Assembly (NCBI GenBank): GCA_015143295.1
Contig: CM026562.1
Location: 12,924,041 to 12,988,040 of the forward strand
Source: Tetracentron sinense
Taxonomy: Eukaryota; Streptophyta; Magnoliopsida; Trochodendrales; Trochodendraceae
DNA length: 64,000 nucleotides
Reading direction: 5' to 3'
The notes under the pieces are model-generated. The model was not told the origin of the DNA. It made no database searches and saw only the letters and a list, made by a program, of their open reading frames with translations. A program made the position numbers and the translations under genes. This document shows, piece after piece, positions 1,474 through 63,568 of the stretch (positions are counted from its first letter, which is position 1; the number at the start of each line of letters is the position of its first letter).

Positions 1474-2409
1474 AAAGGTCTTTTAAAACAAAGTATTTGA
1501 TGAGTTTATAGTGCAGACATTGACGTCTGAGAAGAAGAGACCTTCAAATGTTGATGTTTGGCGTTTATAGTAACCCATAATTTTTTCTGTCTTTGCAGAC
1601 GTCGACGTCTGAGAAGGAAACATTGACGTTTGAGAGTAACAATGTTTAAAGAAAAATTTTGTGTTGCAGACGTTGAAGTCTCAATGTTAAACGTCGGCGT
1701 CTGCCTATGGAAAGCTTATAACGACTAGTTTTTCAACGACTACAACTGTATTAAATGCTACACCAACATCTATAATCATCTAAGCCCTATAAATTGAGTT
1801 CATTTCTGAACTATGAACAACCACTGATCATCCATTATGCTTACATTGATTATTGCATTCAACTCTCATCAATCATACGGTGAAAATCCCCAAATCCTTA
1901 AATCCTCCTATTTGAGCTTTTAAATCCCAATCATTTGAGTGATTTTTAGAAGAGTTATTTCAATCTTATCTAGCTCATTAACGAGCTTTGTATTTGGATT
2001 CAAATCCATCAAACTTCATACTTTGAAGAAAATCAAGAATCTGTGTATTCTTATCTGAGAAGTCGGAAAGCTTCAAGAAGATAAGAGAAGGTGTTCTCTT
2101 GCATCAAAGGTGGTGTCCCAACTTGTGAAGAAAATTGGAAAGGTTAGGATTCGCCTGGAAGAAGTCTAAATGATTTGGAAATAAAATCGTGTGAATTCTT
2201 GAAGTGGGAGCTGAAAGGCGGGGACGTAGACAAGTTGTCGATCCTCATGAAAAAAACTCTCGGTGTTTGTATCTATTTATCTCTCTATATTTTTTATTGC
2301 TTGTTGCATTGCCTTAAATTTATTAATTCCGTAAAATAGTCTCAGGTGAAATTTTATTGTACCATTGACCCTAATCACCCCCCCTCTAGGGTCCACTTAT
2401 TGGGCAACA
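1474..2409 (+). repeat. 5' LTR of old Sirevirus, 3' portion
   Basis: About 936 bp of the LTR are visible; the upstream roughly 540 bp lie beyond the insertion at 1-1473. It matches 22404-22628 plus 40966-41657. It ends GGGCAACA at 2409, directly before the primer-binding site. It contains a palindrome cluster and a TATA box (separate entry) and the conserved run of C near 2384 before CTCTAGGG, which the other Sirevirus LTRs also have. Confidence 0.85.
1514..1795 (+). promoter_or_regulatory. LTR palindrome cluster plus TATA box
   Basis: There are six copies of a degenerate AGACGTCGACGTCT-type palindrome, the best a perfect 16-mer at 1596-1611. Hand-counted centres are 1521.5, 1552.5, 1603.5, 1624.5, 1674.5 and 1695.5, giving spacings of 31, 51, 21, 50 and 21. 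A TATAAATT box follows at 1788-1795. This is the U3 region of a Copia LTR, so the cluster is a likely upstream regulatory array. The factor that binds it is unknown. Confidence 0.65.
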
Positions 2410-2424
2410 ATTGATATCAGAGCT
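2410..2424 (+). other. Primer-binding site (tRNA-iMet type)
   Basis: ATTGATATCAGAGCT immediately follows the LTR end. It differs by one base (A for G) from the TTGGTATCAGAGC found in the other Copia elements here. Complementarity to the initiator tRNA-Met 3' end is the usual Copia primer. Confidence 0.85.
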
Positions 2425-2473
2425 AAGTATTTAGTATTTTGGTTTAACAACTTTAGAGAAAATATCAATATAT

Positions 2474-2639
2474 ATGACAAATAATATTTTTGCAACCAGC
2501 TTAGGAGAGGACCAGTCAACCACTAGGCCTCCACTGTTTAATGGAGAAAATTATAGTTACTAAAAAACCCGGATGATGTATTACATCCAATCCCTCAACT
2601 ATCAATGTTGGAAGGTGATAGTCAATGACCCATTTCTTC
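2474..2639 (+). pseudogene. gag: Gag N-terminus, old Sirevirus, interrupted
   Basis: The ATG at 2474 starts a reading frame resembling the minus-strand Sirevirus Gag start at 51831 (MxNIFAT, then PPLFNGENY). An in-frame TAA replaces the conserved Trp codon after NYSY, so the frame was dead or died later. It is cut at 2639 by the Tekay-like insertion and resumes at 12332 after the duplicated TCTTC. Gag would form the virus-like particle core. Confidence 0.8.
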
Positions 2640-3455
2640 TGTAGAACCCCAAAATTCAAGTTCACTGCGCTATGAATAGTGTCAGTGAATAGTATCTTAT
2701 ATAGTGTGAGTAAAGGCCTAAAGCCTTCCATTGAGTCTTGGTATTATGGTGAGTCAAGTGAGGATTTTAGGTATGTGTTTTGAGTCTAAAAGAGAGAGTA
2801 AAAATATACTCTAAGTAAGTAAAAGCAAGGGTATAAAATACCCTAAGTGTTTAATGGGTTGCAAGTGAATAGCGCGGTAAATAGTGCTAGTGCGCGAGGC
2901 ATAAAGAGGTCGGGGCCTGTCATGCATAATGGCGTGAATTCAATAATTACCTAGGTGGGTTACAAACCTATGGGGTAACAAGTCATGAGGTTTGAGTAGG
3001 GTGTTGGACCCGAGTGAAAAGAGTATGAAAGCACTAGAAACGTTCTAAGTGTTAAAAGGGTATGTCTTAACATACCCTCAACTTTATGAAGCTCTAGTTT
3101 AGTCACCGCTTATCTGAATCGAGTGATTATTGAATTTGTAGAAAGATATTGGAACCCTCTTTAAGGTTGATGTTGATCACTTTTCCAGATTTTGAGTTGG
3201 GGTGGAGTTAAAAGTGGGATTTCCGAAGTCGGATTGCTGAAAATCTGGGTTCCTGAAATCTATTTTCGGACTACTTGGCTTTAGAGCCCATTTAGATAAT
3301 TAAAAGTCAAAATTTGGATTTGTCTATTCGAGACAAAATCGGTCCTCTTCAAAATACGAGTCTAACACAAGTTGAATCATCAAAATTCGATAAGGGAGTC
3401 AAAAGTTATGGCCAAAATACCAAAGTAGGAAAAACCTGAAAACTTTCTATCAGAG

Positions 3456-3694
3456 TTACGATCGATCGTAAATGACCTACGAACGATCGTAAAGTACTGA
3501 AAATGCTGAAAACTCACTGGATAACCTATATTGATCATAGGAAGCTTATGAACGATCGTAGAGTCCCAGAAACCCTGTAAACTCACTGTTAAGCCTACGA
3601 TCGATCGTAGGAAGCCTACGAATGATCTTAGATGTTTGACCCAAACTTTTTTTATGCGTGATTTTTGGATTTTTCACCCCTTTGCCTATAAATA
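3456..3694 (+). promoter_or_regulatory. Palindrome pairs upstream of LTR TATA box
   Basis: Six palindromes of the ACGATCGATCGT type include a perfect 18-mer CCTACGATCGATCGTAGG at 3594-3611. Hand-counted centres are 3463.5, 3484.5, about 3533, 3553.5, 3602.5 and 3623.5: pairs about 21 bp apart repeating every 69-70 bp. TATAAATA follows at 3687-3694. The corresponding module in the 3' LTR is 9866-10103. Confidence 0.7.
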
Positions 3695-4642
3695 GGGATC
3701 ACATTTGGGGGTTTTCGGGTTACCCTAAACCTAAGAAAGAGGGAGAAAGGAGAAGAGAGATTAGGGAGAAATCCAAAAGAGGGATTTGGATTTGAATCAA
3801 GTGGAGCTCAAGTTTTGATCATCTTCAAGCAAGGATCCTCCTCTATCAAGCTTGGGAATTCCAAATCAAATGGGTCTTCTTCAAGGTTGGGGTTTTACCC
3901 TCAAAGGTTAGTACACTCTCCTAGTTAGCTTAGTAATAACTTAGGTTTTTCCTTAAAATGATTGAAGTTTGATCTTGTATTTTCCCTTTTCTTGAACCCT
4001 ATCATTATCCCTAAGAATGTATGAGATTAATAACTTAGTTATGGATGCCATGTGGATGTAATAGATGTTGTGTGATGGAAAATGGGAATGAGCAATGGTA
4101 CGCATAATGAACACACATAAAGTGTTTGATGAAATGTAAGAAAGAAACTATGAAAAAAAAATTAAAAGACTAAAGAGATGTTGAACGACACTTGTTTGAT
4201 AAAATGTATATATGAGAACTCAATCAAGAATATGACATTATGGTTTAGGATTTTTCCTCAATTGGGTAGTTTTAATCAAATACAAAGCATGTTTCTTCAA
4301 CCCTCACATGGTTATCGATTATTAGTAAATTGGAAAAATTGCCCTATATGTTGCCTTAAATTTTCCATGTCTATGAAAATATAAGAAATGCAAGATTATG
4401 CTTTATTGTTTTATGTCAACATGATATCACCAAGGGGTTGCACACAAGTACACAAGCATGTATGAATCAAGTTTTCTAAGTATAAGGATATGAAAAGAAC
4501 CAGCAAGAACATGAAAGGTGATTACGAAACAATGAACTGAGCTTTTCAAAGTATAAGTTTACATGTAAGAAACCACAAGAATAAGACATGTGAATTTCAA
4601 AATGAATGATAAAGCCGGACATCGGGCCAGTAAAGGGTAGGA

Positions 4643-4658
4643 CATATCGCAAGATATG
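4643..4658 (+). other. Short hairpin with GCAA tetraloop in the LTR
   Basis: CATATC, GCAA, GATATG form a 6 bp stem closed by a GNRA-type loop. It recurs at 10961-10976 in the 3' LTR and, in reverse orientation, at 46616-46631 in the solo LTR. A second copy there (46701-46717) keeps the stem but changes the loop. It sits in transcribed LTR sequence downstream of the TATA box. Confidence 0.5.
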
Positions 4659-4689
4659 ACATACTTGGGTCACAAGAAAACAAGTCAGG

Positions 4690-5330
4690 GATACTAATGT
4701 GTTCCGTTCCATCATAGTCCGGACATTAGTAAACAAGTGAATTACTAGTGTGTTCCGTTCCACCATAGTTCGGGCACTAGTCAAGTCAAGACAAGATGCT
4801 AATGTGTTCCGTCCCATTATAGTTCGGGCATTAGTAAAAGAAGAACAAGATACTAATGTGTTCCATTCCATCATAGTTCGGGCATTACTAAACAAGTGAA
4901 TAACAGTGTGTTCCGTTCCACCATAGTCCGGGCACTAATCAAGTCAAGACAAGATGCTAATGTGTTATGTCCCATTATAGTTTGGGCATTAGTAAAGCAA
5001 GAACAAGATGCTAATGTGTTTCGTTCCATCATGGTCCGGGCATTAATAAGCAAGTGAATAACTAGTGTGTTCCGTTCCACTATAGTCCGGGTACTAGTCA
5101 AGTCAAGATAAGATGCTAATGTGTTCCGTCTCATTATAGTTCGGGAATTAGCAAAGCAAGACAAGAAGCTAGTATGTCCGTTCAATTCATAGTTCGGGTA
5201 CTAGTTAAAACAAGATAAGATGCTAATGTGTTCTGTCCCATTATAGTTCGGGCATTAGTCAAGCATGACAAGACCCTAGTATGTCCGTCCATTTCATAAT
5301 TCGGGTACTAACTAAACAAGACAAGTGAAA
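4690..5330 (+). repeat. Tandem array of hairpin-ended units in the 5' LTR
   Basis: About a dozen imperfect units of about 50-55 bp. Most units begin and end with complementary hexamers, and the two arms change together: CTAATG with CATTAG, CTAGTG with CACTAG, CTAGTA with TACTAG. Inside, TTCCG and CCGGG can also pair. Unit types alternate along much of the array. Related arrays lie at about 11005-11640 and, reversed, at about 62080-62600. Confidence 0.75.
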
Positions 5331-6000
5331 TAAAGAATCTCATGAGACGTGTAAGGTAACCACAAGATGCATAAGACATGTAAGGAACTCACAAAGTAGA
5401 AAATATGTGTTGGCCAAAGCATGAATTGAAAAGTATGAGTTAAAGTATAATGTTCAAGATTGTACAAGTATTATTTGTATTAGCTTCCGCACTCTGATTA
5501 TGTATATGTGATAATGAACTGTACCATGCATGACATATTATTGTTCTTAATTGTTTTGTTGCCACTATTGTTAGCTAGTAGTTTGTACTCGCTGAGTATT
5601 CCATACTCAGTCGTACCTATTGATGTTGGCATGTACACCATACGGTTATTGAGGTGGTTTATAGAGAGTAGGAGTTGCTCGGATTGTCAGTCAGATGTTA
5701 GGGGTTAGAAATGTGGTCTTAGGGTTGGGATGAGTGAGAGAGACATGTATTTTGGGACTTTCTTTTGGGGATTTTCATGTAGACTTGAGTTGGTAACTTA
5801 AGTGTTGAACTCTTGTGTACATATTGGAATTTTTATTAAGTAAATTGTTTATGTTAACACTTGGAAGAACAATTATAGAAAATAAATTTTCAGTTCACTA
5901 TTTAGCTTGCCTTATATGCTTCTGCAGGATGGTTATTATGATAAGTAATGAGCCCAAATATCGCCCAACTCCTTGGGGGTATTTTGGGGCGTTACAGAAG

Positions 6001-6013
6001 TGGAATCGAAGCC
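6001..6013 (+). other. Degenerate primer-binding site of Tekay-like element
   Basis: TGGAATCGAAGCC lies 4 bp after the LTR end at 5996 and matches the initiator tRNA-Met consensus TGGTATCAGAGCC at 10 of 13 positions. Position and similarity suggest the minus-strand primer site. Confidence 0.55.
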
Positions 6014-8635: not shown

Positions 8636-9034
8636 CTCGGGAAAGCAAGCCCCAGTAGCTCTCACAATCGCCTCTCTAGGTGAGCTAGGGTAGAAGTTAC
8701 CATGCCGGAGTTGGATGCTCAAGCACCACAAAATGTAGGGTGAAGTGCTCGGATGACAATTTTTGGTAAGGGATGATGTAATGTTGTGTTTCAGTACATT
8801 GCCTATATGTAAAAACATACTATATTATGTTATGAGGTTTTCTTGCTTTTTGTGCACGTTCAGTAATACAAAAAACCTAAGTGCATTGCCAACAAGCAAG
8901 TGCCTAGTCTTGTGTTGATTGATGAAGGGTTCATATGTCTTTTAGTATAACTAGGGGTAGAGTTCAAGGTCAAGTATGGGAAAGTATCTCCGCTCGATTT
9001 TGTATCGTCCAAATTTAGAGGATGAAATTTCTAT
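8636..9034 (+). other. Short 3' untranslated region, no gene
   Basis: This is the stretch between the end of the zinc-knuckle coding and the polypurine tract. The bases before 9035 (ATTTAGAGGATGAAATTTCTATAAG) resemble the conserved pol-to-LTR junction of Tekay-like elements, which suggests that pol was removed by an internal deletion between gag and this point. Confidence 0.5.
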
Positions 9035-9047
9035 AAGGGGGGGAGGA
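9035..9047 (+). other. Polypurine tract
   Basis: AAGGGGGGGAGGA lies immediately before TGTAGAACCCC of the 3' LTR. It is the plus-strand priming site for reverse transcription. Confidence 0.85.
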
Positions 9048-16930: not shown

Positions 16931-17557
16931 GGAGAGAATTAAGCATGACTAAGCTAAGTGAATTGAAATGATCTTATCAGAAAAATGATTAAAAAGATTA
17001 TCAAGAAAATCCTTATTCAAAATCAAAATTGAATGCTTGATAATGTTTGCACATTGATTTAATGCTTGAAATGGTAATTTTGGTAGTTAAAAGATTATTA
17101 CAAAACAAAGAAAAATTGATTTAAAATGAAAAATTAATGTTTCTAAAAAATTTAGCATGAAACATCGACGTCTAAATCCTAAATATCGAAGTCTCAAGGT
17201 TATTTTTTTGGTGTTTAGTTTCTGTTTCAAGCTAAACGTCGATGTCTCAAGTTCAGGACTTTTCAAACATCAACTTTTGTGTAAGAAACAGTAGCTTGCT
17301 TAAGACCAAGCGTCGACGTAAATTGTTTAATAAACTCCAAACGTCAACGTTTGGCCTCTTGAGTATAAAATACCTAAAACCCTATTTTCTTTTCCAAAAC
17401 CCCTTCTTCGTGCACGACTGTTCTTCTTTCCTCCAAACCCTCTTCAAATCTTCTTTTTCACTCAAAATATTCCAAAACCACCTCAATCTCATTCCATTAC
17501 CTTCTAAAACTTCCATTTAATTCTAAAATCATTTTCCCCAAATTTGTTTGAGCAAAA
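16931..17557 (+). promoter_or_regulatory. Spacer with palindrome cluster and TATA box before the third ORF
   Basis: Between pol and the third ORF, palindromes of the same word as this element's LTR reappear: around 17162-17172, 17234-17246, 17309-17322 and 17338-17354 (CAAACGTCAACGTTTGG). TATAAAAT follows at 17364-17371 and the third ORF begins at 17558. The arrangement copies that of the LTR and suggests an internal promoter. No coding frame is seen here. Confidence 0.55.
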
Positions 17558-23106: not shown

Positions 23107-24335
23107 TGTAAATCCCTAAATAGGTGTTGGCAAATTCCGTGATCATTAGATAGGTCAGTTGAGTCGAGTCGTCGAGTCATGTTTAACTTGTCAAAAGAGA
23201 AGAGCTAAAGCTTAAGGAAGATTGAAGAAAGTGAAGGACAAAGCTTCTACTCCGGATCTAGACAGGTAATGGACTTAGAGACCCTACCTAGGTTGGATTT
23301 GACTTAGATAACCCTAAAAATACCTAGGAGGATAGTTTTAAGCCTACCAAAGATATTTGATCTTAGTTGAATCAAATAAAAATAAAATGAAAATGGTTTT
23401 GGCAAAAATTCTGTCTCAACCGATCGCTCGGTATTGCGACCGATCGATCGGTGGCCTACCGAGCGATCGGTGGCTATCGACTGGACCAAATTTTTGTATG
23501 GGGAAATTTTCCAGAGAGATGATTTATGACCGAGCGATCGGTCATTAAAACCGATCGATCCGTTGTGAACCGAGCGATCGGTAGTGAGCACCGATCGATC
23601 GGTCCCCGTAAAAAGAATTTTTCTTTTTCTGGATTCTTTTTTTAACCCTATATAAACAACTTTTGAGAGACCTAATTCGGGTCTTTGATATTTTTTGAAA
23701 GAGTAGAGGTCTGAGAAACTCTTCTAAGGTTTTTCTTATTGCTTTTATTAGATCTTTGTTGATCCCTCATCTTTCTAAGATCCTAGAGAATGCAAGTATA
23801 GATTTAAATCTTTGATCTTGCATTGTGTGATCCCAGATCTGTATGAGATCCCTCTAGGGTTTGAAAATTTACTAAATTGATTCACAACCCTACACCTTGT
23901 GTGTGTCCGGTGTTTGATCCGGAGCCTTCGTGGAAGGAGATCGATCGTGTGTGATCGTGGATTTGAAGTCGCTTGAAAAGATTTGGTCGGTGTGGAACCG
24001 AAGCTGCTAAGGCGGAGATCGAACCTGCTGGTTCGTGGAAATCAAGAGTAAGAGTCTATACCTAGGAACGTCGTTTCTGTTTTGGTAAGGTCTTGTCTTG
24101 TACTTGATATCTTTTTATAGTGAAGTTTATTGTTGGACAAGGTCCCGTGGTTTTTTTCCCGTTAGGGTTTTCCACGTAAAAATCTTCTGTGTTTGATTTG
24201 TGTGGATTGTCTGATTGAATTAATCATTGATTACTAAACATATTAATTGAAAAATTAAAATTGGTTAAAAATTATTAGATAGACCTATTCACCCCCCCTC
24301 TAGGTCTTAGAGATCATTGATCTGGATAAATTTCA
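23107..24335 (+). repeat. Sirevirus LTR1 (1,229 bp)
   Basis: TGTAAATCCC to AAATTTCA. It contains seven palindromes and a TATA box (next entry), and the C-rich run before CTCTAGGTC near its end. It differs from LTR2 by small changes, for example one extra T near 23396. Confidence 0.92.
23419..23656 (+). promoter_or_regulatory. Seven-palindrome array and TATA box of young Sirevirus LTR
   Basis: Seven 14-mers of the form ACCGATCGATCGGT, or with one GAGC/GCTC variant half, at 23419, 23439, 23458, 23529, 23550, 23569 and 23590. Start-to-start spacings are 20, 19, 71, 21, 19 and 21. TATATAAA is at 23649-23656. Identical arrays start at 28417 (TATA 28647) and 38328 (TATA 38558). Spacing near two helical turns suggests sites on one DNA face for a dimeric protein. 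Confidence 0.75.
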
Positions 24336-24350: not shown

Positions 24351-24396
24351 TGTTCACTGATAAGGCTAATCCCTTAAGTGTGATCCTGTATTATCC

Positions 24397-35880: not shown

Positions 35881-35893
35881 AAATTTTCAGACC

Positions 35894-35951
35894 ACCGATC
35901 GCTCGGTGCTAAATACCGATCGATCGGTCTTTCGTGAACAGTGTTATAAAA
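35894..35951 (+). promoter_or_regulatory. Palindrome pair and TATA box before the third ORF
   Basis: ACCGATCGCTCGGT at 35894-35907 and ACCGATCGATCGGT at 35915-35928 are 21 bp apart and are exactly the word used in this element's LTR. TATAAAA follows at 35945-35951, and the third ORF starts at 36152. It reads as a compact copy of the LTR promoter architecture. Confidence 0.6.
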
Positions 35952-36151
35952 CCCTCATTTCTATTTTTTTTTGTTCACTTGTTCTCCGACCTCTAGAGCG
36001 ATCCCTCGGTTCCTTCTCCTACAAATCCTTCATACGGTCATTCCTTTCTATTTTAAAGGTTTCCCAAGCATCTAAAAGGTAAGATTTGTGGATTTTCTTC
36101 GATTTAGATTGATTTTCTCGTCTAGGGCATTGTTTTCTTGCATTTTCTTCC

Positions 36152-37443
36152 ATGGCCTTCGTTTTGTCGTTAATCCTTCTTGCCTATCTCATGTCTGGCG
36201 TTCCCAAACGTCGGAGGTTGGTCCTCAACAACCAAGAGGATCCTCCTCAAGATGAGGAAAACCTAGAGCCATCTACTTTCACTCCAATAGGGCATGGTAT
36301 TTCCATTGGGGACAGACCAATTCGTAGAATCATTGATTCTACTGCTGAGAATCGCCAAAAGGCTTTGGCTGATAAATCTGGTAAAAACAAGGGTAAAGCC
36401 TCATCTTCCCATGCCAGTCTATCATCTTCTTTCATTAATCCTTCGGCTGCTCAACTTTACCGTGAATATTTTAGCAAAAAGGCTATCATGGTTGAGCGTG
36501 GAATTCAAATTTTGGATTTTGCTGATTATTATCTTCCTAAACTCATTACCGATCGTAAATGGGAAGGTATTCTCCATCTATCATGTCCAGCTCCTATTCG
36601 GTTGGTTCAGGAATTTTATTCCAATTTTTCTGAAATCAACTTGAAAACTTGGTCTTTCAAAACTAAAGCTTTAGAAAAATCTGTGGTAATAAATCCTGAT
36701 TTAATTGCTGCTATTCTTGGTTGTCCTCGAGTTCTAAATGCTTATTATCCTTATAGATATAAGACTGATGAGGATAAAGAACCCATGGAACAAGTTGTTA
36801 CCTTTCTAAGTGGCACTCCTTCATTTTGGGTTGGTTCTCTCATTGAAGTGTCTAAACTCACTAGGGATGCAAGACTTGTAAACCTAGTCATGAGTGCCAA
36901 TATCCACCCAAAGGTACATACTGTAGACCTTAGGGAAGAAAGAGCTCGATTTCTATTCAGTCTTCTTCGTGGGGATGATATTGATCTTGGAGCACATTTT
37001 ATCGATTTGATGATCCAAGCTCATCGATCTGACACTGTAGTTGGAGCCCTTCCCTTTGGATCTCTTATCACTAAACTTCTTGGTTTACAAGGGGTATTTG
37101 CACCTCCTGGTGCTCCTACTCGAGTACCTAAGGGTCCAATCAATAAAAAGACCCTATCTCAGAGTTTCTCACATGCCTCAGTTCGAGATACAGAGAGGAG
37201 GGAGCAGAAGTTGGTGTTGGGTCATCTCGTCCTCCACCAACCACTATGGATGATCTTGGGAGGATGATGAGAGAGATGCAGATGGATCTCCGGACTCATA
37301 TTTCTTCATACGAGGAGTTTACTACAAAGGTTCGTGGTAGACTTGGATCTCTCGATGCAGCCGTGCTAGGAGTACAGAGAGATGTTCGAGATTTTCGGGC
37401 TTACTATGAGTCACAGCTCACTTCTGATGATGACCAGGAGTGA
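36152..37443 (+). pseudogene. Third ORF of young Sirevirus (env-like / putative plant transposon protein)
   Basis: A 371-residue frame from ATG 36152 continues, after a frameshift near 37245, in a 65-residue frame (37246-37443). The N-terminal 16 residues are hydrophobic but are followed by PKRRR, so a later Met (36191) may be the true start. The middle (about residues 95-310) has YLPKLITDRKWEGIL, LVQEFYSNF and LKTWSFKTKAL, resembling an uncharacterised plant transposon-protein domain common after pol in Sireviruses. The C-terminal part is helical and charged. Role unknown: it has been called env-like, but nuclear or regulatory roles are equally open. It has its own upstream TATA and palindromes. 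Confident as a Sirevirus ORF, not as an envelope. Confidence 0.75.
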
Positions 37444-44226: not shown

Positions 44227-44410
44227 AATTTATAGTCCCGCAGCACTCGTCGACAAATAGGTTGGAATCGTTGCCGAGTGGCTAAGAAAACTCTAATTTT
44301 TATGTCACTCATCGACGAGTAGTGAGAACTCGTCGCCAAGTGGCCAAACTCAACCTACTGTTTTATGCACTCGTCGATGAGTACAACTCTGTACAGTGAC
44401 TCGTCACCAA
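44227..44410 (-). promoter_or_regulatory. Palindrome cluster and TATA box before the third ORF (minus strand)
   Basis: On the minus strand, ACTCGTCGATGAGT-type palindromes at 44369-44382, 44307-44320 and near 44244-44257 precede TATAAATT (plus-strand 44227-44234), about 150 bp before the third-ORF ATG. The word is the same as in this element's LTR. Confidence 0.55.
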
Positions 44411-45667
44411 ATCCATACAATAAATACTTAAATTTTTGAATTTTTAAGTTCAAACCCAATTTCTCATGCCTTAAATCTTCCTTTTAATAAACATACGATT
44501 ATTTTGGACAATGAAAACTACAATTCAAGTAGATATACATAATAAACACAATCCAACTTTCAACATATATCAAACATAAAGCACATTCACCAAAGATTTC
44601 TCAATTTTTCATACTCGGCATATTTTCATTTAATGTCACATAATCTAGCCATGCCTAATTCTCTTCTTAAAGTACTGAATCTATCATAAGGGAGTGGTTT
44701 AGTAAATATGTCAGCAAGTTGGTTATTTGTTTCAACAAATTCAAACATTACATCCTCATTTTGAACATGATCCCTTATGAAATGATATCTAATTTCAATG
44801 TATTTAGTTCTTGAATGTTGAATGAGATTTTTGGTCAAACATATAGCACTTGTATTATCACATTTAATTAGAATTTTATCATAGAATAATTTGAAGTCTT
44901 CTAATTGTTGTTTCATGTAGAGTGTTTGAGCACAACAACTACCAGCTGCTACATATTCAGCCCCAGCTGTTGATAGAGCTACAGAGTTTTGTTTCTTACA
45001 AGACCATGAAACTAATGAGTGTCCTAAGAAGTAACATGTGCCACTAGTGCTCTTCCAATCAACTTTGCATGCAGCAAAGTCAGTATCAGAATAACTAACT
45101 AGTTCTAGTGATGTGTTCTTAGGGTACCACAGTCTTAATTGTTCCAATTAGATATTTGAAAAAAAAAATTATAGCAGTCATATGTGATTCTTTAGGATTA
45201 GCTTGAAATCTTGCACATATGCAAACACTAAACATACTATCAGGTCTACTAGCAATTAAGGATAATAAACTACCAATCATACCTCGATATTTAGTTTCTT
45301 CCACACTTATGCCCTTTTCATCTTTATCCAGCTTTGTAGATGGACTCATGGGAGTGTCAGCTTCCTTTGAGTTGCCCATCCCAAATTTCTTGAGTAGCTC
45401 TCTTGTATACATGGCTTGATTGATGAAGATGTCTTTATTTGTTTGCTTGATTTGAAGCCCGAGGAAGAAACTTAACTCTCCCATCATGCTCATTTCAAAT
45501 TCATCTTGCATGGTTTTAACAATTTCTTGACAAAGAGATTCATTAGTAGAACCAAAAATATTATCATCTACATAGATTTGTACTATAAACATATTATCAT
45601 TTTTGGACTTTATAAACAATGTAGTATCTATTTTTCCTCTAATGAACTCATTTTCAAGTAGAAAGCC

Positions 45668-48090
45668 TGTCGCGTCCCAAAATACCCCCTAGGAGTTAAG
45701 GGATACTTTAGAGGTGACTATTCGTACTTGCCAAATCATCCTGTAATGAGCAAGGTAAACATAGTATTATAACCACCATAATCAGAGTGTGGAAACTAAA
45801 ACATGAGTGCGGAAGCGTGAACTAACCTTTTTTTTTCTATATAAGGTGGTCTGTATTCCAAGTGAATATATATAAAACATATCAAGTCGAAGGTAGACAT
45901 GCCCACCCATCAAAATACAAAAGAAGTATCGAGCCCACTATGCTTAACAGTAATCTAAGTAAGGCCAAACGTCGTGATCCCTATCCTCTTGCGACTGTAT
46001 CGGGATAAGAGGCTCTCTCTTCTCCATATACTCTTCCTCAACCCAAGGCTCAAGGTTGAGGGCTTCCTCAGTATCTACCGACATAAAAGTACGGTTGAGT
46101 ATGGAGTACTCAGTGAGTACAAGCTACTAACTAACCATAGCAATAACAATCACACAAAGGCAACGAGATATAATTCATCATTTCAATCTAAAGCAATAAT
46201 AGCAGCATATAACAAATGGCAGTGAAGTAAAGCAATGTAATAATCTTGACATGCTTGAATGAATGCAAAAACTTCAGTAAAACTCGTCCTTTAAAAATCA
46301 TGTCTTATTCTTGAAAATAGTTTTTCATGTTTCTTTCAAAACTTACTTGTCATGTTTGAAAATTTGTTCTTGTCTTGGTCTTGTTCGTGAGAATTACACA
46401 TGTTTGTCTTGTCTTGCTTGGAATCACTTGTCTTGCTTGTTTTTGTCATATTCTTGACATGTTTTTGACTTGACTTGCTCATATACTTGTGAGCCAGAGG
46501 TTAGTGCCCTTGAAGCGACTTGTGAGCCGGGAACGTAGGTTCCCTTTAATGAAATATATATAGAGAAAAGGGTACACCAACCTCCTTGTCTTGTTTTCTT
46601 GTGAATCAGGTATGATATATCTTGCGATATGCTCTACCCTTGACTGGCCCGATATCTGGCTTTATCATTCATGTTTGTTTTTCTTGTGAGCCAAGTATGA
46701 CATATCCTAAGGATATGCCCTACCCTTGACCGGCCCGATGTCCGGCTTTATCATTCGTATCATTAATCACAATTCTTGTTCTTGTTTGGTTTAACATATA
46801 CATATACTTTTAGAAAACCGATTCATGCATGCATATGTGCGTGTGTGTAACATTTGTAGTAAATATAATGACATGCTTGAGTATAGCATTTCAATTTCTA
46901 ATATAAGCATGTGAAAATGTAGATAACATGTAGAGCATTTGATCAACTTATCATTTTTAGGAAAAATTACATAAAGCCTACTTTCATTTTCTTCATTAAA
47001 TCCATTAAATTCTCGTTTAGGTATTTTATCAAACACATGGCGTGCAACACATTCACAGTTATTTCATTTCAACTTCTTAGTGCCTATATTTCATCAAACC
47101 ACATAAAGTGTATTCATTATGCTTGAAATGCCCATCCACCATTTTTCCAGCACACATTCATCAACCAACACGGCATCCAATCGCCTCAACCCCTCATCCA
47201 TTCATACATCCCACCATTCACATTTTTCTTGTTCAGATTTAGGGAATATAGCATATTTCAAGGGAAGGAAAGATACAAGATCAAAATCACAATTTCCAAA
47301 AGAGAAAATCTAGGTTATTGTTAAGGAAGTTAGTAGGGTGTACTAACCTTGAGACCAAAGCTTGATCTTGCAAGAAAATCCTTGATTGGGAACCTTCAAG
47401 CTTAATGGAGGATGATTCTAGCTTGGGATTCTTCAAGCTTGAGCTTCTTGATCTCAATCCCAAAAACCCCTCCTTGGATTCTCCTTCAATGTCCTCTTCT
47501 CATTTTTCCTCTTTTTAGGTTTAGGAAACCTCCCCAAGTGAGAACCCTTAATAGGTTAAGGGTAAACCCAAAAATTTGGCATCAGCTACCATGTGCGATC
47601 GATCGCACACTTAACTGCGATCAATCGCGGGTCAGTGTGATCGATTACACATGGATGCAATATGTCACACATGAACCCGAACACTTTTGTCTAATTTCCC
47701 CCTGCATGCAATCGATCACACACTCTTGCGATTGATCGCAGATCCCTGCGATCTGTCGCACCTGACATCTCAACTATCGCATATGGTCCAGAATGTTTGG
47801 GGCTAATTTCGCCTGCATGCAATCAATCGCACCTATCTTGTGATCGATCGCACTTTCCAGATTTTGTTGTTTTCCCTCATTTTTTCCTACTTTGGTATTT
47901 CAGTTATAACTTTTGACTCGTTTGTCGGATTTCGATGATTCAACTTGCGTTGGATTCATCATTCGAAGAGGAACATTTCTGGCATTTTAGAAATTTTCAA
48001 TTCTTTTTTATTTATTAATTGGAATACGTGAAAGACCAATTGGCTATGAAAATACTATTCATTGGGTGCGAAGAGTTCTGGGGCGCTACA
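45668..48090 (-). mobile_element. Solo LTR (2,423 bp), Tekay-like
   Basis: Minus-strand start TGTAGCGCCCC (48090), end GGACGCGACA (45668), flanked by a perfect duplication AAGCC (45663-45667, 48091-48095). The absence of any internal region shows LTR-LTR recombination. It shares with the element at 2640 the GCAA-type hairpin block (46616-46631, 46701-46717) and the GGCCCGAT..CCGGCTTTATCATT context, but uses its own palindrome word. It interrupts the RT of the minus-strand Sirevirus. Confidence 0.92.
47592..47851 (-). promoter_or_regulatory. Eight regularly spaced palindromes in the solo LTR
   Basis: A perfect 18-mer TGTGCGATCGATCGCACA at 47592-47609 and seven degenerate copies. Hand-counted centres 47600.5, 47622.5, 47642.5, 47713.5, 47733.5, 47753.5, 47824.5 and 47845.5 give spacings 22, 20, 71, 20, 20, 71 and 21. 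The expected TATA position downstream on the minus strand (near 47553) is decayed to CCTATTAAGGG. Confidence 0.7.
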
Positions 48091-51894: not shown

Positions 51895-53262
51895 TGTTGC
51901 CCAGCTAATGGACCCTAGAGGGGGAGTGATTAGGGTCAATGGCAATTTAAAAAATTATCTAAGTGATTTATGCATAATTTAAAAGTTAATCACTAATGCT
52001 ACAAGTAATAACAAGGTAAATAGAGAGAGGGACAGATAAAGAATACGACACAAGGATTTGATATTGGGGTTCAGCAACTTGCCTACGTCCCCGGCTTTAA
52101 GCTTCCCGCTTTAAGGATTTTCTCATGATTTCACAAATCATACTCTTCTTTACGTGCAAAGAGTAAGCATTTACAATCCTTTTCGCAGGCTCAGGATAAA
52201 ACCTCTTCAAGAGAATGCCTCTCTTGGATACACTAAGAACTTCTTCTCAACTGGTGCAAGAATCCTCGATTCTTGACTTTAGCTTTTACAAAGATTTGTT
52301 GGATATAAAATCCAAAATTGAAAGCTCCTTACTGAGCTAGATAAGAATGGAATACAAATTTAATAATCACTCAAAGATGATTGGAATTGAATGCTCTTAC
52401 AAAGAGGGATTGGGATTCTAGGTATTCAATGAAAAACAGAGTTTTGATTGCTGGAACTGATAGAATAATCAATGAATGAATGAATAGTATTAGAATCTTG
52501 TTGTTTGCTCATAAATATTATTTATTTATAGTTGAGCAATCAAATATGGCCATTTGGGGAACATGTAATGCGAAATAGCAGTTGAAAACTAGCCGTTATA
52601 CTCAGTTCCCGCAAGCACTCGTCGATGAGTGAGTCTGGAAAGTACTGGAGTCGTCGTCGAGTGAAAATAGTAAGCAAATGAGATTTATTGTCATCCCACT
52701 CGTCAACGAGTCTCTTCCACTTGTCGACGAGTTCTCTGAAATATTATAGAGAACTCATCTCTATAAGACCAAAAGGATGAGAATTATTGTATGGTCCATA
52801 GGCATTCAAAAATCATCATTTTTAATCATTTTTAGGCCCTTAGAATGATGTCCAAACTATTCTAAGTATCCTAGGGTCTATCTAGGTATACTTTGAGCAA
52901 TCATGTTCCAATATCTTGAGGACTTTTACAAGGTCCTAGACACTCTCAAGGATAACACTAGACTACTTTGAGTGTTGATCTTCTTTCTGAATTTATGGTG
53001 CTTCATTTTTTATGTGTCTTCATGAATTGGCTTGAGTCCTTGAAACATTTTCTTTGAAATGACTTATGTTTGGACTTTTGACTTGATTTTCTTGAGAGTT
53101 TGATCTTTTCAATACTCCATCACTTGAATGATGATCTTAATGCTCTTTTTCTCTGAAAGTACACATTCTAAATGGAAATGTTAGTACCATAAAGATCATT
53201 CCATTATTGTGTTATCATCGAAACTATTAAGGGTACTTAGAGTTGTAACCTTGAGGCTAACA
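51895..53262 (-). repeat. 5' LTR of minus-strand Sirevirus (1,368 bp)
   Basis: TGTTAGCC (53262 downwards) to GGGCAACA (51895). It aligns with the old plus-strand LTR, for example in the ACACAATAATG block near its start. It contains the palindrome/TATA module below. Confidence 0.85.
52521..52732 (-). promoter_or_regulatory. Palindromes and TATA box in minus-strand Sirevirus LTR
   Basis: ACTCGTCGACGAGT-type words at 52719-52732, 52698-52711, 52649-52662 (degenerate) and 52617-52630; centre spacings 21, 49 and 32. On the minus strand TATAAATAAA follows (plus 52521-52530). Confidence 0.6.
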
Positions 53263-54003: not shown

Positions 54004-54800
54004 ATTTCGAGGACAAAATTATTAGTAAGGAGGATAGAATCTAGTGATTCTAAATTTCCATTTTTGCTCCTAAGGGTATTTTTGTAAATTCCTAGTTTAA
54101 GGGTGCTTTGGTAATATTGCTAGTATGTGTTTGGCCATGAGCAACTATCTATCATGAGGGTTAACTAAGAATTGGAGCTAAACACTATTAGTAGGGGTAA
54201 TTAAGTAAAAGCATAAATAATGGAGAGTATAAATAGAAAGAGAAACCTAATTTTCTCACTTTTGTAAAACCTAATCTAAGAGAGCTTTTGGAGAAAAAAG
54301 AGGAGGCTCTAGGGTTTGGGGGGTATTGTTCAAGCTTGGAAGGCAAATCCGGGGTTCGAGGCTTGAGCTTTCATCGTGGGGAGACCGATCCTTCGAGGCA
54401 AACCCCTTTTGGTTGGATTCTCTTTGAAGAAGCCCTCAATTTCTAGGGTAAAGGCAAGTGAACACATTATAAACCATTAAATTCGTGTTTAGCATTGTTT
54501 TTTTTATAATTATAGCATGTATGTGATCATTTAAAAATCAACTATGTTGAATTCAGAATGGATTTGGGGAGTTTGAGTGAGAATCAGGATTTTTAACTTA
54601 AGTTTCATTACTTGCGCTCGAGCGGAGGTCTGTTGCACCGCTTGAGTGGTTTGATATTGTCGACTTCCGCTCGAGCAGAGGTTTTCCACCGCTCGAGCAG
54701 TTTGGCCTCAGGTTGCGAGGGGAGGTTTCTGGTCGACAGCACTCAAGTGGCAGTCAGCCCCGCTTGAGCGGTTGTTATAGAATTTTGATAATTTCTTTGT
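54004..54800 (+). repeat. Gypsy LTR 5' part with CGCTCGAGCG palindromes
   Basis: The purine tract AGTAAGGAGGA precedes a degenerate LTR start at about 54040 (TCTAGTG; the other arm has TGTAGTG). TATAAATA is at about 54228. Palindromes of the GCTCGAGC type are centred at 54619.5, 54643.5, 54672.5, 54694.5, 54744.5 and 54765.5, downstream of the TATA box and so probably in transcribed LTR. The inverted copy of this segment ends at 54742. Confidence 0.65.
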
Positions 54801-56120
54801 TTTGAATCAGAACTTAGAAAATTGATGTATGATTCACCCATATATGTCTATGTTTGCCATACTTAGTACTTTTAATATCATGTTATGAACAATAAATCCA
54901 TGTTAATCTCCATCAATGTCTTATAATGTTTTCATGATAAGGAATTGTTATGCATGCCTAAATTAACTGCTCAGGATTGATTTACATTTGATAAATTGTC
55001 ATGCATGCCTACATTAACTATTCAGGGTTGTTTTATAAATTGTATAGCTTAGTAACTTCTTCGCTATGGCGGTATGGGACATCATAGTAAAGAAATTACT
55101 AAGCAGAGAATGATAATAATTTATGAACTTGTTAGGGTCCCATTAATTGAGGTTTTCCACCGCTCCGGAACCATTAGAACCTTTTGCATGGAAGGAGGCT
55201 TTTTATTATATAGAGAGAGTGTCCATGAAATATAGCTTTTGAAACATCCCAAACGAGCTTAAAAATCAAATTTTCACGAGTTTACAAATATCCAAAACAG
55301 CGTCCACCGATCGATCGGCCAAAAGGGCACCGATCGATTGGTGAGTTTGGAATTTGATCAAATTTCCTTGACAGAAGTTGTAGAGCTTTCCGAGCTGGTC
55401 GATTTGATATATTATCGGCCTAAATCAGAGCTATGGTCAATGAGTTATGCCCGGTACACCGAACAAGGGTTGATTTGCATTTCTAACTTCTCTTTAGCTC
55501 GGATCTTTGCTCGGTAGCAATTTACAAGAAACTTTAAAGCTTGTAAATTATTATTTTAGTCTTCTTTTCCTCGCATGAACCTGAAAATAATAAACACACC
55601 CAAGTGAAGTATTATAGTGGAAAAATGGGCTTAAAGGGATCAACAAATGTAGTTTAAGATGCATAAATGTGTAACAATTAGTACCGATCACCTACAATGG
55701 TGAAATGAGGACAATTATGTATGATCCCAATAATTGGTGAATTGAGTACAATTAAGTACGAACTCAATTTCCAATTAAGTGCAGTTACGTACGATCTCAA
55801 ACCACAGAGTAGTTGAATTATGTAAGATCACAAAGAGTGATTATCTGGGTGCCTTTCCATACAAGCCCAGGTTTTCTATTTAATGGTCATTAGGGTGAGC
55901 TGGTGTGATCCCTAAGGGCAATGACGTATACCAAGTAATTCAAAATGAAGAAAAATGTTGATACTTGAATGGTTATAAATTTACATTGAAGAACTGGGAT
56001 TATAACTTGTGTATGCATGTGCGTGATGGTTGTGTTTATTTTGTTGAGCTTATTGTTCACTCTTGCTATTAATTTTTTGGAGTTACCTGAAGTATATAGG
56101 GAGTCTCCAAGAGCAAGTAG
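54801..56120 (+). other. Probable remainder of gypsy LTR; no gene
   Basis: AT-rich sequence without coding potential. It holds a 14 bp inverted repeat with one mismatch (55048-55061 and 55090-55103, CTTAGTAA-type) and two ATCGAT palindromes (55307-55318 and 55330-55341, centres 23 bp apart). I could not find the LTR end. Confidence 0.4.
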
Positions 56121-58508: not shown

Positions 58509-58572
58509 ATATTGTGTATACGATTTGGGGTCATGACATAGGGATACCCCAAGATGATGTGTAGGTCATGGA

Positions 58573-60568: not shown

Positions 60569-61484
60569 ATAGATCCAATTCGATAAATAATTGACATATT
60601 ATATAATATTTTTATATATACATAATATATTGTAAATTTATAAAATTGAAATAGTCTCATTAATATATACTTTCTATATATTTTTAAGATATATTAAATT
60701 ATTATTGTGAATATACATTAGGATACAATATTAGTTTATTATTCTTTGAATAAAATTTATATATTTAAAATATTTTTACTTTTAATTTTTTTTAAATAAT
60801 CAAATAATTAGTAAAATTTTCTAAATTCGATTATTTTAAGCAAAGTCAAAAAAAAAAAAAAAACTCTATTCACTATTGGATGGATATTTAATCGGATTTG
60901 AATAGTCAAATATGTAATCGAATACAAATTTGGATATATGCTTCAAATTCGCTCAATTCCTGCTCTAGTTCTAACTTTAACATTTCATCACATACCTTCT
61001 CTTATCTTATTTGATAAATGGGCAATGATGTGAGAGCACTTACCCACACTCATACGCTCATAAGTGTAGGGGTCGTTTAGGAGTGGGCAACATACTCATG
61101 AAAATTAGGAACATCATTTGGCACTACACAAGCAAATATCTGGCTTTCCCCAAGTGAAAATGGGTCAAATATGCAATCAAAACACCAAGAGGAATGCTAG
61201 CCCTGTGACTGGCTGAGGCCAAAGTAAAATAAACTGGCCAAGCAATTAACTCAGCCTCTAACAATCTTTAAGTCTAGTTAAAAATTTTAACCCATATGGT
61301 TAAAAAATTATATTCTTTAATCTTAAGGATTTGTGCCTTACTACTCAAGGGCTTTTCCCACTTTTCTAATCTTCCCCTCTAACGCGGGCCGGGCTGAGGC
61401 GGGCGTGCACTTCTCTCTCTCTATCTATCCCTCCCTCAGAAAAAGGAATTGGCATCCTTTCGTTAGAACAAGCTTCAATATCTG
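60569..61484. other. AT-rich intergenic DNA
   Basis: Very AT-rich to about 60960 (possible relic of a dispersed element starting with the frequent plant motif AGGGGTGTCAAT at about 60537), then ordinary sequence. A CT-rich simple stretch lies at about 61410-61437. No gene seen. Confidence 0.4.
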
Positions 61485-62079
61485 TGTCGCGACCTAAAAT
61501 CCCACCTATGAGTTATGAGACTTTGACTCGTGACTTATCATATCATACCATCCTGTAAAAACATACAAGGCATGCTAATAGCGGAAGCTGAAAATTTCTT
61601 ATAACATAACCGTATTCCAAGTGTTTACAATACTAGAAATAAAGAGTGAATATCTTCTCTCAACAAAATATACATCTCTCCCTCTCATCACTCAAAACTG
61701 ATAATAGGGTTGCCTATCCAGGATCCTCTCTCCATAGGATGATCCAAGGCAGGTTCCTCCTTCACGTAATCCTCCTCGACTCATGGTTCTAGAGCACAGC
61801 TATCAAACGTGTACCTGCCAAAAATAACAGTTCGACTAAGCATTAAATCGCTCAGCGTATATAAACCACCAACTAGCAATTTTTATGAACATCAATAATA
61901 ACATACTCATATGTCAAGCAAAACAAAGCGGAATAAAGCATACTTTAAAACTAGAGTATGAAAACCATACTTTCAATTATCACATGTGCATACTTTAATC
62001 AGAATCAATACTTTATCAGCTTTCTTTGAAACAAAACTTTTACAAGAGTCTTATCAAGGGAACATACTTTCAATACTTA

Positions 62080-62600
62080 ACTAGTACCCGAATTATGGTT
62101 GGACGAAACATACTAGCATCTTCATTTCTTTTACTTTACTTAACTAGTACCCAAATTATAAAATGGATGGAACATACTAGTATCTTCATTACCTTCACTT
62201 TACTTAACTAGTACCCGAACTATGAAATGAACGGAACACACTAGCATCTTTCTTTGCTTTTACTTCACTTGACTAGTACCCGAACTATGAAATTGACGGA
62301 ACATACTAGCATCTTTCTTTACTTTTACTTCACTTGACTAGTACCTGAACTATGAAATAGACGGAATATACTAGCATCTTTTACCTTACTTAACTAGTAC
62401 CCGAACTAGGAAATAGACAGACATACTAGCATCTTTTACTGTACTTGACTAGCACCCGAAATATGAAATAGACTAACGTACTAGCATCTTTTACCTTACT
62501 TAACTAGTATCTGAACTATGAAATTGACGGATATACTAACAGCTTTTACTTTACTAGTACTTGAACTATGAAAATTGACGGACATACTAGCATCTTTCCT
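62080..62600 (-). repeat. Tandem hairpin array (minus strand)
   Basis: About nine units of 52-65 bp of the form CTAGTACCCGAACTATGAAAT..GACGGA..TACTAGCATC. The stem arms are CTAGTA/TACTAG in almost all units. Homologous in design to the arrays at 4690-5330 and 11005-11640. Confidence 0.75.
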
Positions 62601-63313
62601 TATGAGCTTTACTTGTGACTTTTCGGATACCCGTACTTATGAGAATCCTCTTACATGCAAAACATGTGTTCATATATTCTTTGTGAATGACATAGTGGCA
62701 ATAAAGTCCCAAGTAGCATAGCACATGTTTTTTCATATCTCAGTTATGGCAATAACATACACATACTTAGCTTACACATCTTCTATTTCACCAAGAACAT
62801 GCTTTTCATCTTTACTTTTTAACATAGAATTAATCATAATTTAATCACGTTTCATCAAAACCATATATCTAAACTTACTTTCTGATAAAACCCTTCTTTT
62901 CAATACTCAGATTTATAAAAAAAAAACTCGATCATGCAAGCGTATGTGTTCATACATCATTAGTGAGCAATATGATAAACATAAAAATCCTCAACTATCA
63001 TGATAATATCCATATTACTTCATCCATAGCAATAGCATGCATAAACATAATCGATACCACCTGATTTCATTAAAGAATCATACACAAAACCCTATTATCT
63101 ATTGATGACCTATAACAAGACTAGTTAGTAGAGCGTATCTACCTTTCAAGACCGAATCCCCTCGGTCTAGTGCTTGAGAAAGTCTCTTGCGGTGAAAACT
63201 GGCTTCACCCTTGATCCTAGCACAACCCCCTTTCCAAATCCTAGCTTCTCTCTCTTTTTCTCTCAAAAATCTCTCTTAGAATTTGATAAACCCCAAACCC
63301 ACGAATTGGGTTC

Positions 63314-63568
63314 TATTTATAGGTAAAGGGGTTGTCAAAACCCCAAATACCCTTAAACATATCTCAGTAGGTCGGCTAAGGCACAAAACACATCAAAGTG
63401 GTCGACCGGAGGCATTAGCAATAGACCGGAAGAAGGGCGGTCGACCAGTGGTCCGAGCGGTCAACCAGTTTGGTGCACACTATATGAACAAAACCCCATA
63501 GACATTTAGTGCGATGAGCGGTTGACCGGTCATGGAAGCGGTCGACTGGTTTGGCCAGCAGTCGACCG
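63314..63568 (-). promoter_or_regulatory. GTCGAC palindrome array and TATA box
   Basis: Eight GTCGAC-centred sites, some degenerate, at centres 63373.5, 63403.5, 63423.5, 63442.5, 63462.5, 63523.5, 63543.5 and 63563.5 (spacings 30, 20, 19, 20, 61, 20, 20). On the minus strand TATAAATA (plus 63314-63321) lies just downstream. Confidence 0.65.

What the first reader, a model, noticed from the sequence alone, without database searches (positions are those of the whole stretch)
1514..63568. Unrelated Copia and Gypsy LTRs share one geometry of element-specific palindromes
Seven LTR families here each carry 4-8 copies of a private 10-18 bp CG-centred palindrome: CCGATCGATCGG (23419-23603), AGACGTCGACGTCT (1514-1705), ACTCGTCGACGAGT (52617-52732), ACGATCGATCGT (3456-3631), GCGATCGATCGC (47592-47851), GGTCGACC (63371-63568) and GCTCGAGC (54615-54770). 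The words differ but the spacing recurs: centres 19-22 bp apart in pairs or triplets, then jumps of about 49-51 or 70-71 bp. For example 22,20,71,20,20,71,21 in the solo LTR, 20,19,71,21,19,21 in the young Sirevirus, and 21-bp pairs every 70 bp in the Tekay-like LTR. In six of seven cases a TATA box, or its decayed remnant, lies just downstream. Palindromes in Sirevirus LTRs have been described before; common spacing across Copia and Gypsy, with sequence free to change but geometry kept, points to convergent binding of a dimeric protein on one DNA face, possibly helping the element escape silencing.
Basis: partly seen in the sequence, partly recalled or inferred. Interest (0 to 1): 0.9.

Follow-up and report, generated by a model that had tools for sequence, protein, structure and literature searches.

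The report
Helix-phased palindrome arrays in retrotransposon promoters
Copia and Gypsy jumping genes in this stretch of (by their type, likely plant) DNA carry, mostly just ahead of a start signal, rows of mirror-image DNA words whose centres lie close to whole turns of the double helix apart; these likely serve as landing strips where a pair-forming protein would bind side by side to switch the element on.

Summary
The arrays are real, not chance: a blind scan found 35 similar-palindrome pairs within 130 bp against 0.07 on average in 60 shuffles. The geometry is broader than reported. Centre-to-centre gaps sit near whole helical turns: 45 of 49 lie within about 2 bp of a multiple of 10.2 bp, p=1e-4; non-palindromic repeated words of the window show no such phase. 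Arrays stay in phase over 102-245 bp, each at its own best period.

Corrections: D/E and B/F/G are relatives, so there are about four LTR lineages, not seven families. The words share a TCGA centre. Some long jumps are copied by tandem duplication (B, F, one E array). Gypsy array H lies downstream of its TATA box and fits poorly.

Also found: all three Copia elements carry their word again, with a TATA box, ahead of the env-like region. Sister elements differ symmetrically in the outer letters.

Palindromic boxes ahead of TATA and env are already described for Sireviruses (PMC2829016). Their presence in Gypsy LTRs, the shared core and the helical phase appear new. Best reading: enhancer arrays for a dimeric, probably host-encoded factor. 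No external genome could be tested.

The parts
23420..23602 (+). A (Copia, Sirevirus-like) LTR array, 7 sites of CCGATCGATCGG, gaps 20,19,71,21,19,21; near-identical copies at 28418-28600 and 38329-38511
   Evidence: LTR copies
23649..23656 (+). TATA box of the A LTR, 52 nt past the last palindrome centre
35895..35927 (+). A internal array, 2 sites of the same word, 21 bp apart, ahead of the env-like ORF; TATA at 35945 (a third, weakest-score hit at 36003.5 is probably chance)
36113..37264 (+). A env-like ORF, 384 aa, Pfam PF20167 (named Transposase_32, above cut-off); function unknown
   Evidence: model unusable, mean pLDDT 38
1515..1702 (+). D (Copia) LTR array, 6 sites A(G/A)ACGTCGACGT(C/T)T, gaps 31,51,21,50,21; TATA at 1788; older copy at 22450-22616 continued at 40966-40979
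17160..17352 (+). D internal array ahead of its env-like region, 6 sites of D's word (two at the weakest score); TATA at 17364. A further weakest-score site is centred at 17135.5
52617..52732 (-). E (Copia) LTR array, 4 sites ACTCGTCGACGAGT, gaps 21,49,32; TATA at 52530
44245..44412 (-). E internal array, 6 sites of E's word (one at the weakest score), gaps 30,41,21,41,21; TATA at 44234; ORF pieces with PF20167 matches below the curated cut-off follow at 43640-44224 and 42911-43636
3457..3630 (+). B (Gypsy gag; LTR 2641-5996) array, 5 called sites TACGATCGATCGTA plus one decayed near 3533 (by reading); TATA at 3687; 3' LTR copy 9867-10040
47594..47852 (-). F solo LTR (about 45669-48093 by reading, inserted in E) array, 8 sites TGCGATCGATCGCA, gaps 21,71,20,20,71,20,22; decayed TATA
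63398..63569 (-). G (LTR related to B) array, 6 called sites (C/G)CGGTCGACCG(C/G) plus one decayed near 63422 (by reading); gaps 20,20,61,20,39; TATA at 63321
54614..54771 (+). H (Gypsy, SH3_Tf2-1 tail then LTR) array, 6 sites CCGCTCGAGCGG, gaps 24,29,22,50,21; lies about 386 bp downstream of its TATA; reversed copy of part at 41699-41763
55307..55341 (+). H2: extra pair of A's word, 23 bp apart, host element not assigned

Best explanation
These are retrotransposon promoter arrays of mostly 4-8 TCGA-centred palindromes whose centres lie close to whole helical turns apart, and they likely work as enhancers on which a dimeric, probably host-encoded DNA-binding protein would bind cooperatively along one face of the DNA to drive transcription from the nearby TATA box. 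Shown by sequence: the arrays, the shared TCGA core, the phase of about 10.2 bp, the position 17-93 nt from a TATA box in 8 of the 10 arrays checked, and the re-use of the same word at a second, internal TATA box in all three Copia elements. Inferred: that one dimer reads each palindrome, that neighbouring dimers touch (hence two-turn pairs and whole-turn jumps), that the LTR and internal promoter are switched on together, and that each sister element follows a different member of one protein family, so its outer letters change while core and phase stay. A host factor is preferred over an element-encoded one because Copia and Gypsy here, and the published grape Sirevirus box CGGTCGACCG, share the same core. 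New array units would arise by tandem duplication of phased pairs.
For: Blind scan 35 pairs vs 0.07 shuffled. Helical phase: 49 gaps R=0.789 p=1e-4 (floor), 45/49 within about 2 bp of n x 10.2; gaps of 28 bp or more 21/23; R=0.703 with only best-scoring sites (23 gaps); control 299 non-palindromic repeats R=0.084 p=0.56, 111/299 near. Whole-array coherence R2 0.661 vs 0.278+/-0.037, p=2e-4 (floor of 5000 trials); nine arrays R 0.79-0.98, each at its own best period. Zero-phase period 10.16 bp, bootstrap 10.06-10.28. TATA within 17-93 nt in 8 of 10 arrays. Same word at LTR and env-like promoter in 3 of 3 Copia elements. TCGA consensus centre in 11 of 11 arrays; D vs E at half-site position 5: T in 23 of 24 half-sites vs A in 20 of 20; B vs F at position 6: T 10 of 10 vs C 16 of 16 (sites were called with these words, which leans the counts that way). 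D/E promoters are orthologous by flanks (LTR z 6.5, one env spacer z 4.4, env 3' flank z 4.9). Similar boxes ahead of LTR TATA and env are described in Sireviruses, the grape one being CGGTCGACCG (PMC2829016, sections 9 and 19).
Against: No binding, expression or methylation data; the protein is unknown. H does not fit: array downstream of TATA, gaps 24 and 29, lineage test p=0.24. H2 has a 23-bp gap. At one common period of 10.2 the B array (R=0.51) and D env array (R=0.26) are not coherent; they fit 9.95 and 10.50. With only the best-scoring sites, long gaps are marginal (n=9, p=0.052). The 18 short gaps cluster near 21 bp but by themselves fix no period (best 12.0, the edge of the range). 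At exactly 10.5 bp the longer blind pairs show nothing (V=-0.03, p=0.59). Tandem duplication explains repeated long gaps in B, F and E env. Five of nine D/E flank or spacer comparisons show no significant similarity. Private words per element would also suit an element-encoded protein.
Confidence: 0.57

Rival explanations
1. Element-encoded, VANC-like anti-silencing: each element would make its own sequence-specific protein (in the Copia elements perhaps the PF20167 env-like ORF) that binds its private palindromes at both promoters and keeps them free of methylation, co-evolving with the word.
For: Private word re-used at the LTR and ahead of the env-like region in 3 of 3 Copia elements; concerted word difference between sisters; VANC targets in Arabidopsis also form tandem repeats whose units diverge together between related copies (PMC5735166 passages).
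Against: I saw no such ORF in the Gypsy elements (B has a gag ORF, H an integrase tail; F is a solo LTR and no coding part of G was identified), yet they share the core with Copia A. The ORF model is unusable (pLDDT 38), it has no PDB sequence relative, and no homologue was found in a protein database that, I infer, lacks plants. VANC21 motifs are described as same-orientation YAGTATTAY, not palindromes.
Confidence: 0.15
2. Neutral minisatellite turnover: each LTR amplified a palindromic seed by slippage and unequal exchange, and the regular spacing is only the duplicated unit length.
For: Duplicated long spacers in B (69-70 bp unit, z 5.3), F (111 bp, z 4.8), E env (62 bp, z 3.8), weakly D LTR (z 2.3); TRF arrays at 3457-3627 and 23529-23604. 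A and G have a single long spacer each, so this cannot be excluded there by that test.
Against: Phase remains after removing duplicated and sister gaps (34 gaps, p=5e-5); lineages with mostly unalike spacers agree; E LTR and D env show no duplicated spacer; non-palindromic repeats have no phase; same word at two separate promoters of one element.
Confidence: 0.13
3. Nucleosome-related: the phase of about 10.2 bp would set the rotational position of one nucleosome, or keep the sites facing outward on it for a pioneer-type factor.
For: Fitted period 10.16 (10.06-10.28) lies nearer the recalled nucleosomal value of about 10.2 than free B-DNA 10.5; nine arrays span 102-245 bp between outer centres.
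Against: Spans and number of sites vary; individual arrays fit 9.95-10.5; nothing about nucleosomes was measured here.
Confidence: 0.08
4. RNA-level role: palindromes would fold in the transcript and seed small RNAs, as proposed for maize Sirevirus LTRs.
For: Maize Sirevirus palindromes are described as small-RNA hotspots (Bousios 2016, seen only as cited in passages of PMC10760457 and PMC5311732).
Against: Helical phasing has no evident use in RNA; the words have no loop; 8 of 10 arrays lie ahead of a TATA box, so mostly outside the 5' end of the transcript. No small-RNA data were available.
Confidence: 0.05

Closest known systems
Sirevirus repeated-motif (RM) boxes (Bousios et al. 2010, PMC2829016)
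   Same: Palindromic, CpG-rich, element-specific, many copies, clustered shortly ahead of the LTR TATA box and again ahead of the env gene; grape RM CGGTCGACCG is G's core word; Tnd-1 RM ACAATCGATTGT also centres on TCGA.
   Different: The paper calls the RM Sirevirus-specific and absent from 'classic' elements (its set is Ty1/copia as far as the text seen shows); here Gypsy LTRs (B, F, G, H) have such arrays. Spacing and helical phase are not discussed in the sections read. The A, B, D, E and F words lack the CGG-CCG order of the paper's signature.
VANDAL/VANC anti-silencing targets of Arabidopsis (PMC5735166 passages, PMC10398659 abstract)
   Same: Short motif arrays in non-coding TE regions, made by tandem duplication, diverging in concert between related elements.
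   Different: DNA transposons; motif not a palindrome; an element-encoded binder is shown there, none is known here.
Del/Tekay LTR 5' CpG island (PMC4029996 passages)
   Same: CpG-rich, length-variable segment in Gypsy Del LTRs; the paper recalls CpG-rich stretches just ahead of the TATA box. Array CpG o/e here 0.93-1.88 vs 0.39-0.70 in the rest of the LTR, LTR limits partly approximate.
   Different: The word palindrome does not occur in its main text; the islands were absent from its eudicot Del group.
Tnt1 BII boxes (PMC3316501 passages; repeat structure recalled)
   Same: LTR boxes binding host defence-induced factors.
   Different: No palindromic or phased array is described in the passages read.

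Membership tests
Sirevirus RM boxes (Copia elements A, D, E) | Palindromic boxes clustered ahead of an LTR TATA box | tested here: met
   A, D, E LTR arrays, TATA 52-93 nt past the last centre
Sirevirus RM boxes (Copia elements A, D, E) | Extra copies of the same box ahead of the env gene | tested here: met
   3 of 3 Copia elements, with TATA; D's env-like region by position and DNA similarity to E, without a Pfam match
Sirevirus RM boxes (Copia elements A, D, E) | CGG-CCG core signature | tested here: not met
   A word has CCG-N6-CGG, the reverse order; D and E words lack it. The paper's own Tnd-1 lacks it too
Sirevirus RM boxes (Copia elements A, D, E) | At least eight copies per element | tested here: inconclusive
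   One LTR plus internal array: A 9 (without its weakest hit), D 12-13, E 10, the last two including weakest-score sites
Sirevirus (genus; A, D, E) | Copia reverse transcriptase / integrase | tested here: met
   RVT_2 and integrase core in A and E ORFs, Copia gag in A; no Pfam match in the four D ORFs searched, D assigned by 74-78% DNA identity to E in gag-pol
Sirevirus (genus; A, D, E) | poly-C integrase signal and conserved PBS junction | tested here: met
   by reading only: A 24290-24349; D 2376-2424 (PBS-like stretch altered); E 51880-51930 on the minus strand
Sirevirus (genus; A, D, E) | multiple polypurine tracts | not tested
   no count made
Sirevirus RM boxes (Gypsy elements B, F, G, H) | Copia element | tested here: not met
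   B has Retrotrans_gag/Ty3_capsid; H has SH3_Tf2-1; F and G only by LTR similarity to B
VANC-type anti-silencing system | motif arrays grown by tandem duplication and diverging in concert between sisters | tested here: met
   duplication in B, F, E env; word differences D/E and B/F
VANC-type anti-silencing system | element-encoded protein binding the motif and removing methylation | not testable with these tools
   no binding or methylation data; candidate ORF model unusable

The most novel reading that the evidence does not exclude
Copia and Gypsy retrotransposons have convergently adopted one promoter grammar: TCGA-core palindromes set in whole-turn steps along one face of the DNA, read by an undiscovered family of dimeric host proteins that oligomerise on the helix. 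Each element lineage rides a different member by changing only the outer letters, at its sites and at two promoters at once.
Probability: 0.27. Interest if true: 0.85.

Novelty: new variant of a known kind. Interest (0 to 1): 0.62.

Why it matters
The 2010 Sirevirus paper left the role of its palindromic boxes open and found no common binding factor (section 19). A helical-phase rule makes the question testable: a factor that binds cooperatively on one DNA face predicts that half-turn and full-turn shifts behave differently, and the shared TCGA core gives one bait for finding the protein. The same grammar in Gypsy LTRs would turn a Sirevirus peculiarity into a wider retrotransposon promoter code. 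Symmetric word differences between sister elements would be a natural record of a protein and its site changing together.

Tried and rejected
External replication failed. Protein scans of viral contigs (10 pattern matches, no relative) and of prokaryote genome contigs (5 matches, no relative) found nothing. In one search I scanned all 126: 24 held at least one palindrome pair (6 of these were fetched by a palindrome pattern), several as a single pair, others in GC-rich or GATC-repeat DNA; 3 of 126 (L031, L071, L085) had direct repeats over 150 bp, which I did not follow up. None was identified as a plant LTR element. The protein database gave no hit for the env-like ORF, the only protein searched there. 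The structure of that ORF was unusable, so no fold search was run.

Rejected: chance; a general 10-bp periodicity of repeats in this DNA (control); tandem duplication as the whole cause; common descent of the arrays across superfamilies (long spacers mostly unalike; A/F z 4.6 is the best cross-family score of 66 spacer pairs tried in both orientations, an eight-letter match by eye that I judge not significant).

Choices that could bias the phase test: sites were called with family words and a cost that discounts CpG decay. One search left out the five weakest sites. The 34-gap list left out duplicated and sister gaps, also three D env gaps (31, 21, 53) and A env 82, yet used D env and E env gaps that rest on weakest sites. 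One search repeats the test at five score cut-offs with nothing else dropped. One search was given neither H2 nor the 82-bp A env hit and skipped the two-site A env array. The decayed sites near 3533 and 63422 were used only.

No host protein could be named from recalled plant motifs.

Full report
WHAT IS THERE. The window is a nest of LTR retrotransposons. A is a Copia element with three LTR copies (23107-24336, 28106-29334, 38017-39245) and gag-pol ORFs. D and E are Copia elements whose aligned blocks are 68-78% alike. B has Gypsy gag and LTRs 2641-5996 and 9048-12326. F is a solo LTR inside E, 77% and 71% like B on the two sides of its array. G is an LTR sharing B's downstream 54-bp repeat (66-74%). 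H is a Gypsy element: an SH3_Tf2-1 tail (one of three pieces matched), then an LTR. A, D and E carry the poly-C signal and PBS-type junction described for Sireviruses (by reading). A plant source is inferred from these element types; no call named an organism.

THE ARRAYS ARE REAL. A blind scan for similar 12-bp near-palindromes within 130 bp, with duplicate LTR copies masked, gave 35 pairs; 60 dinucleotide shuffles gave 0.07 on average, at most 1. One of the 35 (6673) is outside the arrays. The scan missed the D arrays and G, which are more decayed or less symmetric.

MORE ARRAYS THAN REPORTED. The blind scan pointed to internal sites in A (35895, 35916) and E (44308), and word scans found them in D too. 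In all three Copia elements the element's own word recurs ahead of the env-like region, followed by a TATA box 17-23 nt past the last centre: A 2 sites, D 6-7 and E 6 counting weakest ones. The region that follows holds a PF20167 ORF in A and PF20167 matches below the cut-off in E; D's matches E by DNA but has no Pfam match. Re-use of a private word at two separate promoters is the strongest hint that a specific factor reads it.

THE WORDS ARE KIN. Pooled half-sites start GA by consensus in 11 of 11 arrays, so each consensus centres on TCGA. A, B, F, G, H and H2 read CG-N-TCGA-N-CG; D and E read CG-TCGA-CG. A and H are the same 14-mer but for one letter per half. Sister elements differ symmetrically: D has T at half-site position 5 in 23 of 24 half-sites where E has A in 20 of 20; at position 6 D has C or T in 23 of 24, E has G in 16 of 20; B has T at position 6 in 10 of 10 where F has C in 16 of 16. 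Sites were called with these words, so the counts lean that way. D and E promoters are orthologous by flanks (LTR downstream flank z 6.5, one env spacer z 4.4, env 3' flank z 4.9), but five of nine comparisons show no significant similarity. So two separate arrays changed both halves in step, by substitution, conversion or re-amplification; I cannot tell which for most sites.

THE SPACING IS HELICAL. Gaps fall at 19-24, 29-32, 39-43, 49-53, 61, 69-71 and 82 bp. With every site kept: 49 gaps, best period 10.05, R=0.789, p=1e-4 against gaps jittered by 5.5 bp; 45 of 49 within about 2 bp of a multiple of 10.2. Gaps of 28 bp or more: 21 of 23, R=0.766, p=1e-4. At four stricter cut-offs: all-gap R 0.70-0.75, p=1e-4 each; long gaps p 2e-4 to 5e-4, except the strictest (n=9, p=0.052). 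The control, 299 non-palindromic repeated 12-mers of the window, gave R=0.084, p=0.56, 111 of 299 near. Whole arrays: R2 0.661 against 0.278+/-0.037 when sites are re-placed with the same span, number and minimum gap, p=2e-4; nine arrays R 0.79-0.98, each at its own best period between 9.95 and 10.5. At a common 10.2, B falls to 0.51 and D env to 0.26, the other seven are 0.74-0.98. Zero-phase period 10.16, bootstrap 10.06-10.28. Leaving out any one of seven families leaves p=2.5e-4, the floor of that run. By lineage: A p=0.010, B/F 0.00075, D/E 0.0005, G 0.025, H 0.24. H thus does not support the rule, and its array lies downstream of its TATA. The short gaps alone cluster near 21 bp and fix no period; a fixed 10.5 bp fits the longer blind pairs not at all (V=-0.03, p=0.59) while 10.05 does (R=0.644, p=4e-4).

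TANDEM DUPLICATION. Long spacers are repeated copies in B, F, E env and perhaps D LTR; A and G have one long spacer each and cannot be tested so; TRF agrees for B. This copies gaps within an array. With duplicated and sister gaps removed, 34 gaps give R=0.766, p=5e-5, and the 16 of 28 bp or more p=2.5e-4. Between families the long spacers are mostly unalike (best A/F z 4.6, then 3.0 and 2.9, of 66 pairs). So duplication is how arrays grow, while near-whole-turn spacing is what different lineages keep.

FUNCTION (inferred). Position ahead of TATA in 8 of 10 arrays checked, dyad symmetry, helical phase and re-use at two promoters suggest an enhancer bound by adjacent dimers. I favour a host factor because Copia and Gypsy here and the published grape Sirevirus box share the core. 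The element-encoded, VANC-like alternative stays open for the Copia elements.

AGAINST PRINT. PMC2829016 (passages; sections 9 and 19 whole) already describes palindromic CpG-island boxes ahead of the TATA box and of env in Sireviruses, calls them Sirevirus-specific, and found no common binding factor. 'Helical' occurs there only in a reference and 'spacing' only in a reference title. Searches listed, as far as titles and abstract starts show, no paper with phased palindrome arrays in Gypsy LTRs; four of these lists were cut (20 of 92, 15 of 22, 15 of 91, 10 of 295), only open-licence papers are held, and Bousios 2016 could not be read. VANC comparison: PMC5735166 passages, PMC10398659 abstract and outline. 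Del CpG islands: PMC4029996 passages. Spacer lengths of ACGT repeats in plant promoters, where helical phasing is invoked: PMC3622567 passages. Passages of PMC11302176 and PMC6911290 were also seen; the latter reports only a weak preference of insertions for palindromes.

LIMITS. One 64-kb window, about four LTR lineages, no external replication, no wet data.

Noticed in passing
23107-39245: Element A is a tandem of three near-identical LTRs with two internal regions, the first shortened, so two copies share a middle LTR.
   Followed up: partly
22603-22640 and 40962-40980: Another element (homologous to 56336-58509) is inserted in D's second LTR, by reading at the last palindrome of the array.
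   Followed up: no
41656-42889: A reversed piece of an H-like element (94.8% to 53504-54743) sits at the D/E boundary, bounded, by eye, by a 16-bp inverted repeat; possible repair filler.
   Followed up: no
36113-37264; 42911-44224 (-): The env-like ORF of A matches Pfam PF20167, named 'putative plant transposon protein', not a known envelope family; E's pieces match it below the cut-off.
   Followed up: partly
55307-55341: A pair of A's word 23 bp apart (second copy one letter off) downstream of H, in a stretch I could not assign to an element.
   Followed up: no
22450-22616: In D's older LTR copy the palindromes appear, uncounted, to differ mainly by C-to-T and G-to-A changes at CpG, as expected if the dead copy was methylated.
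   Followed up: no
2641-12326: Element B has 3.3-kb LTRs around only about 3 kb of internal DNA with a 336-aa gag ORF: probably a non-autonomous derivative.
   Followed up: no
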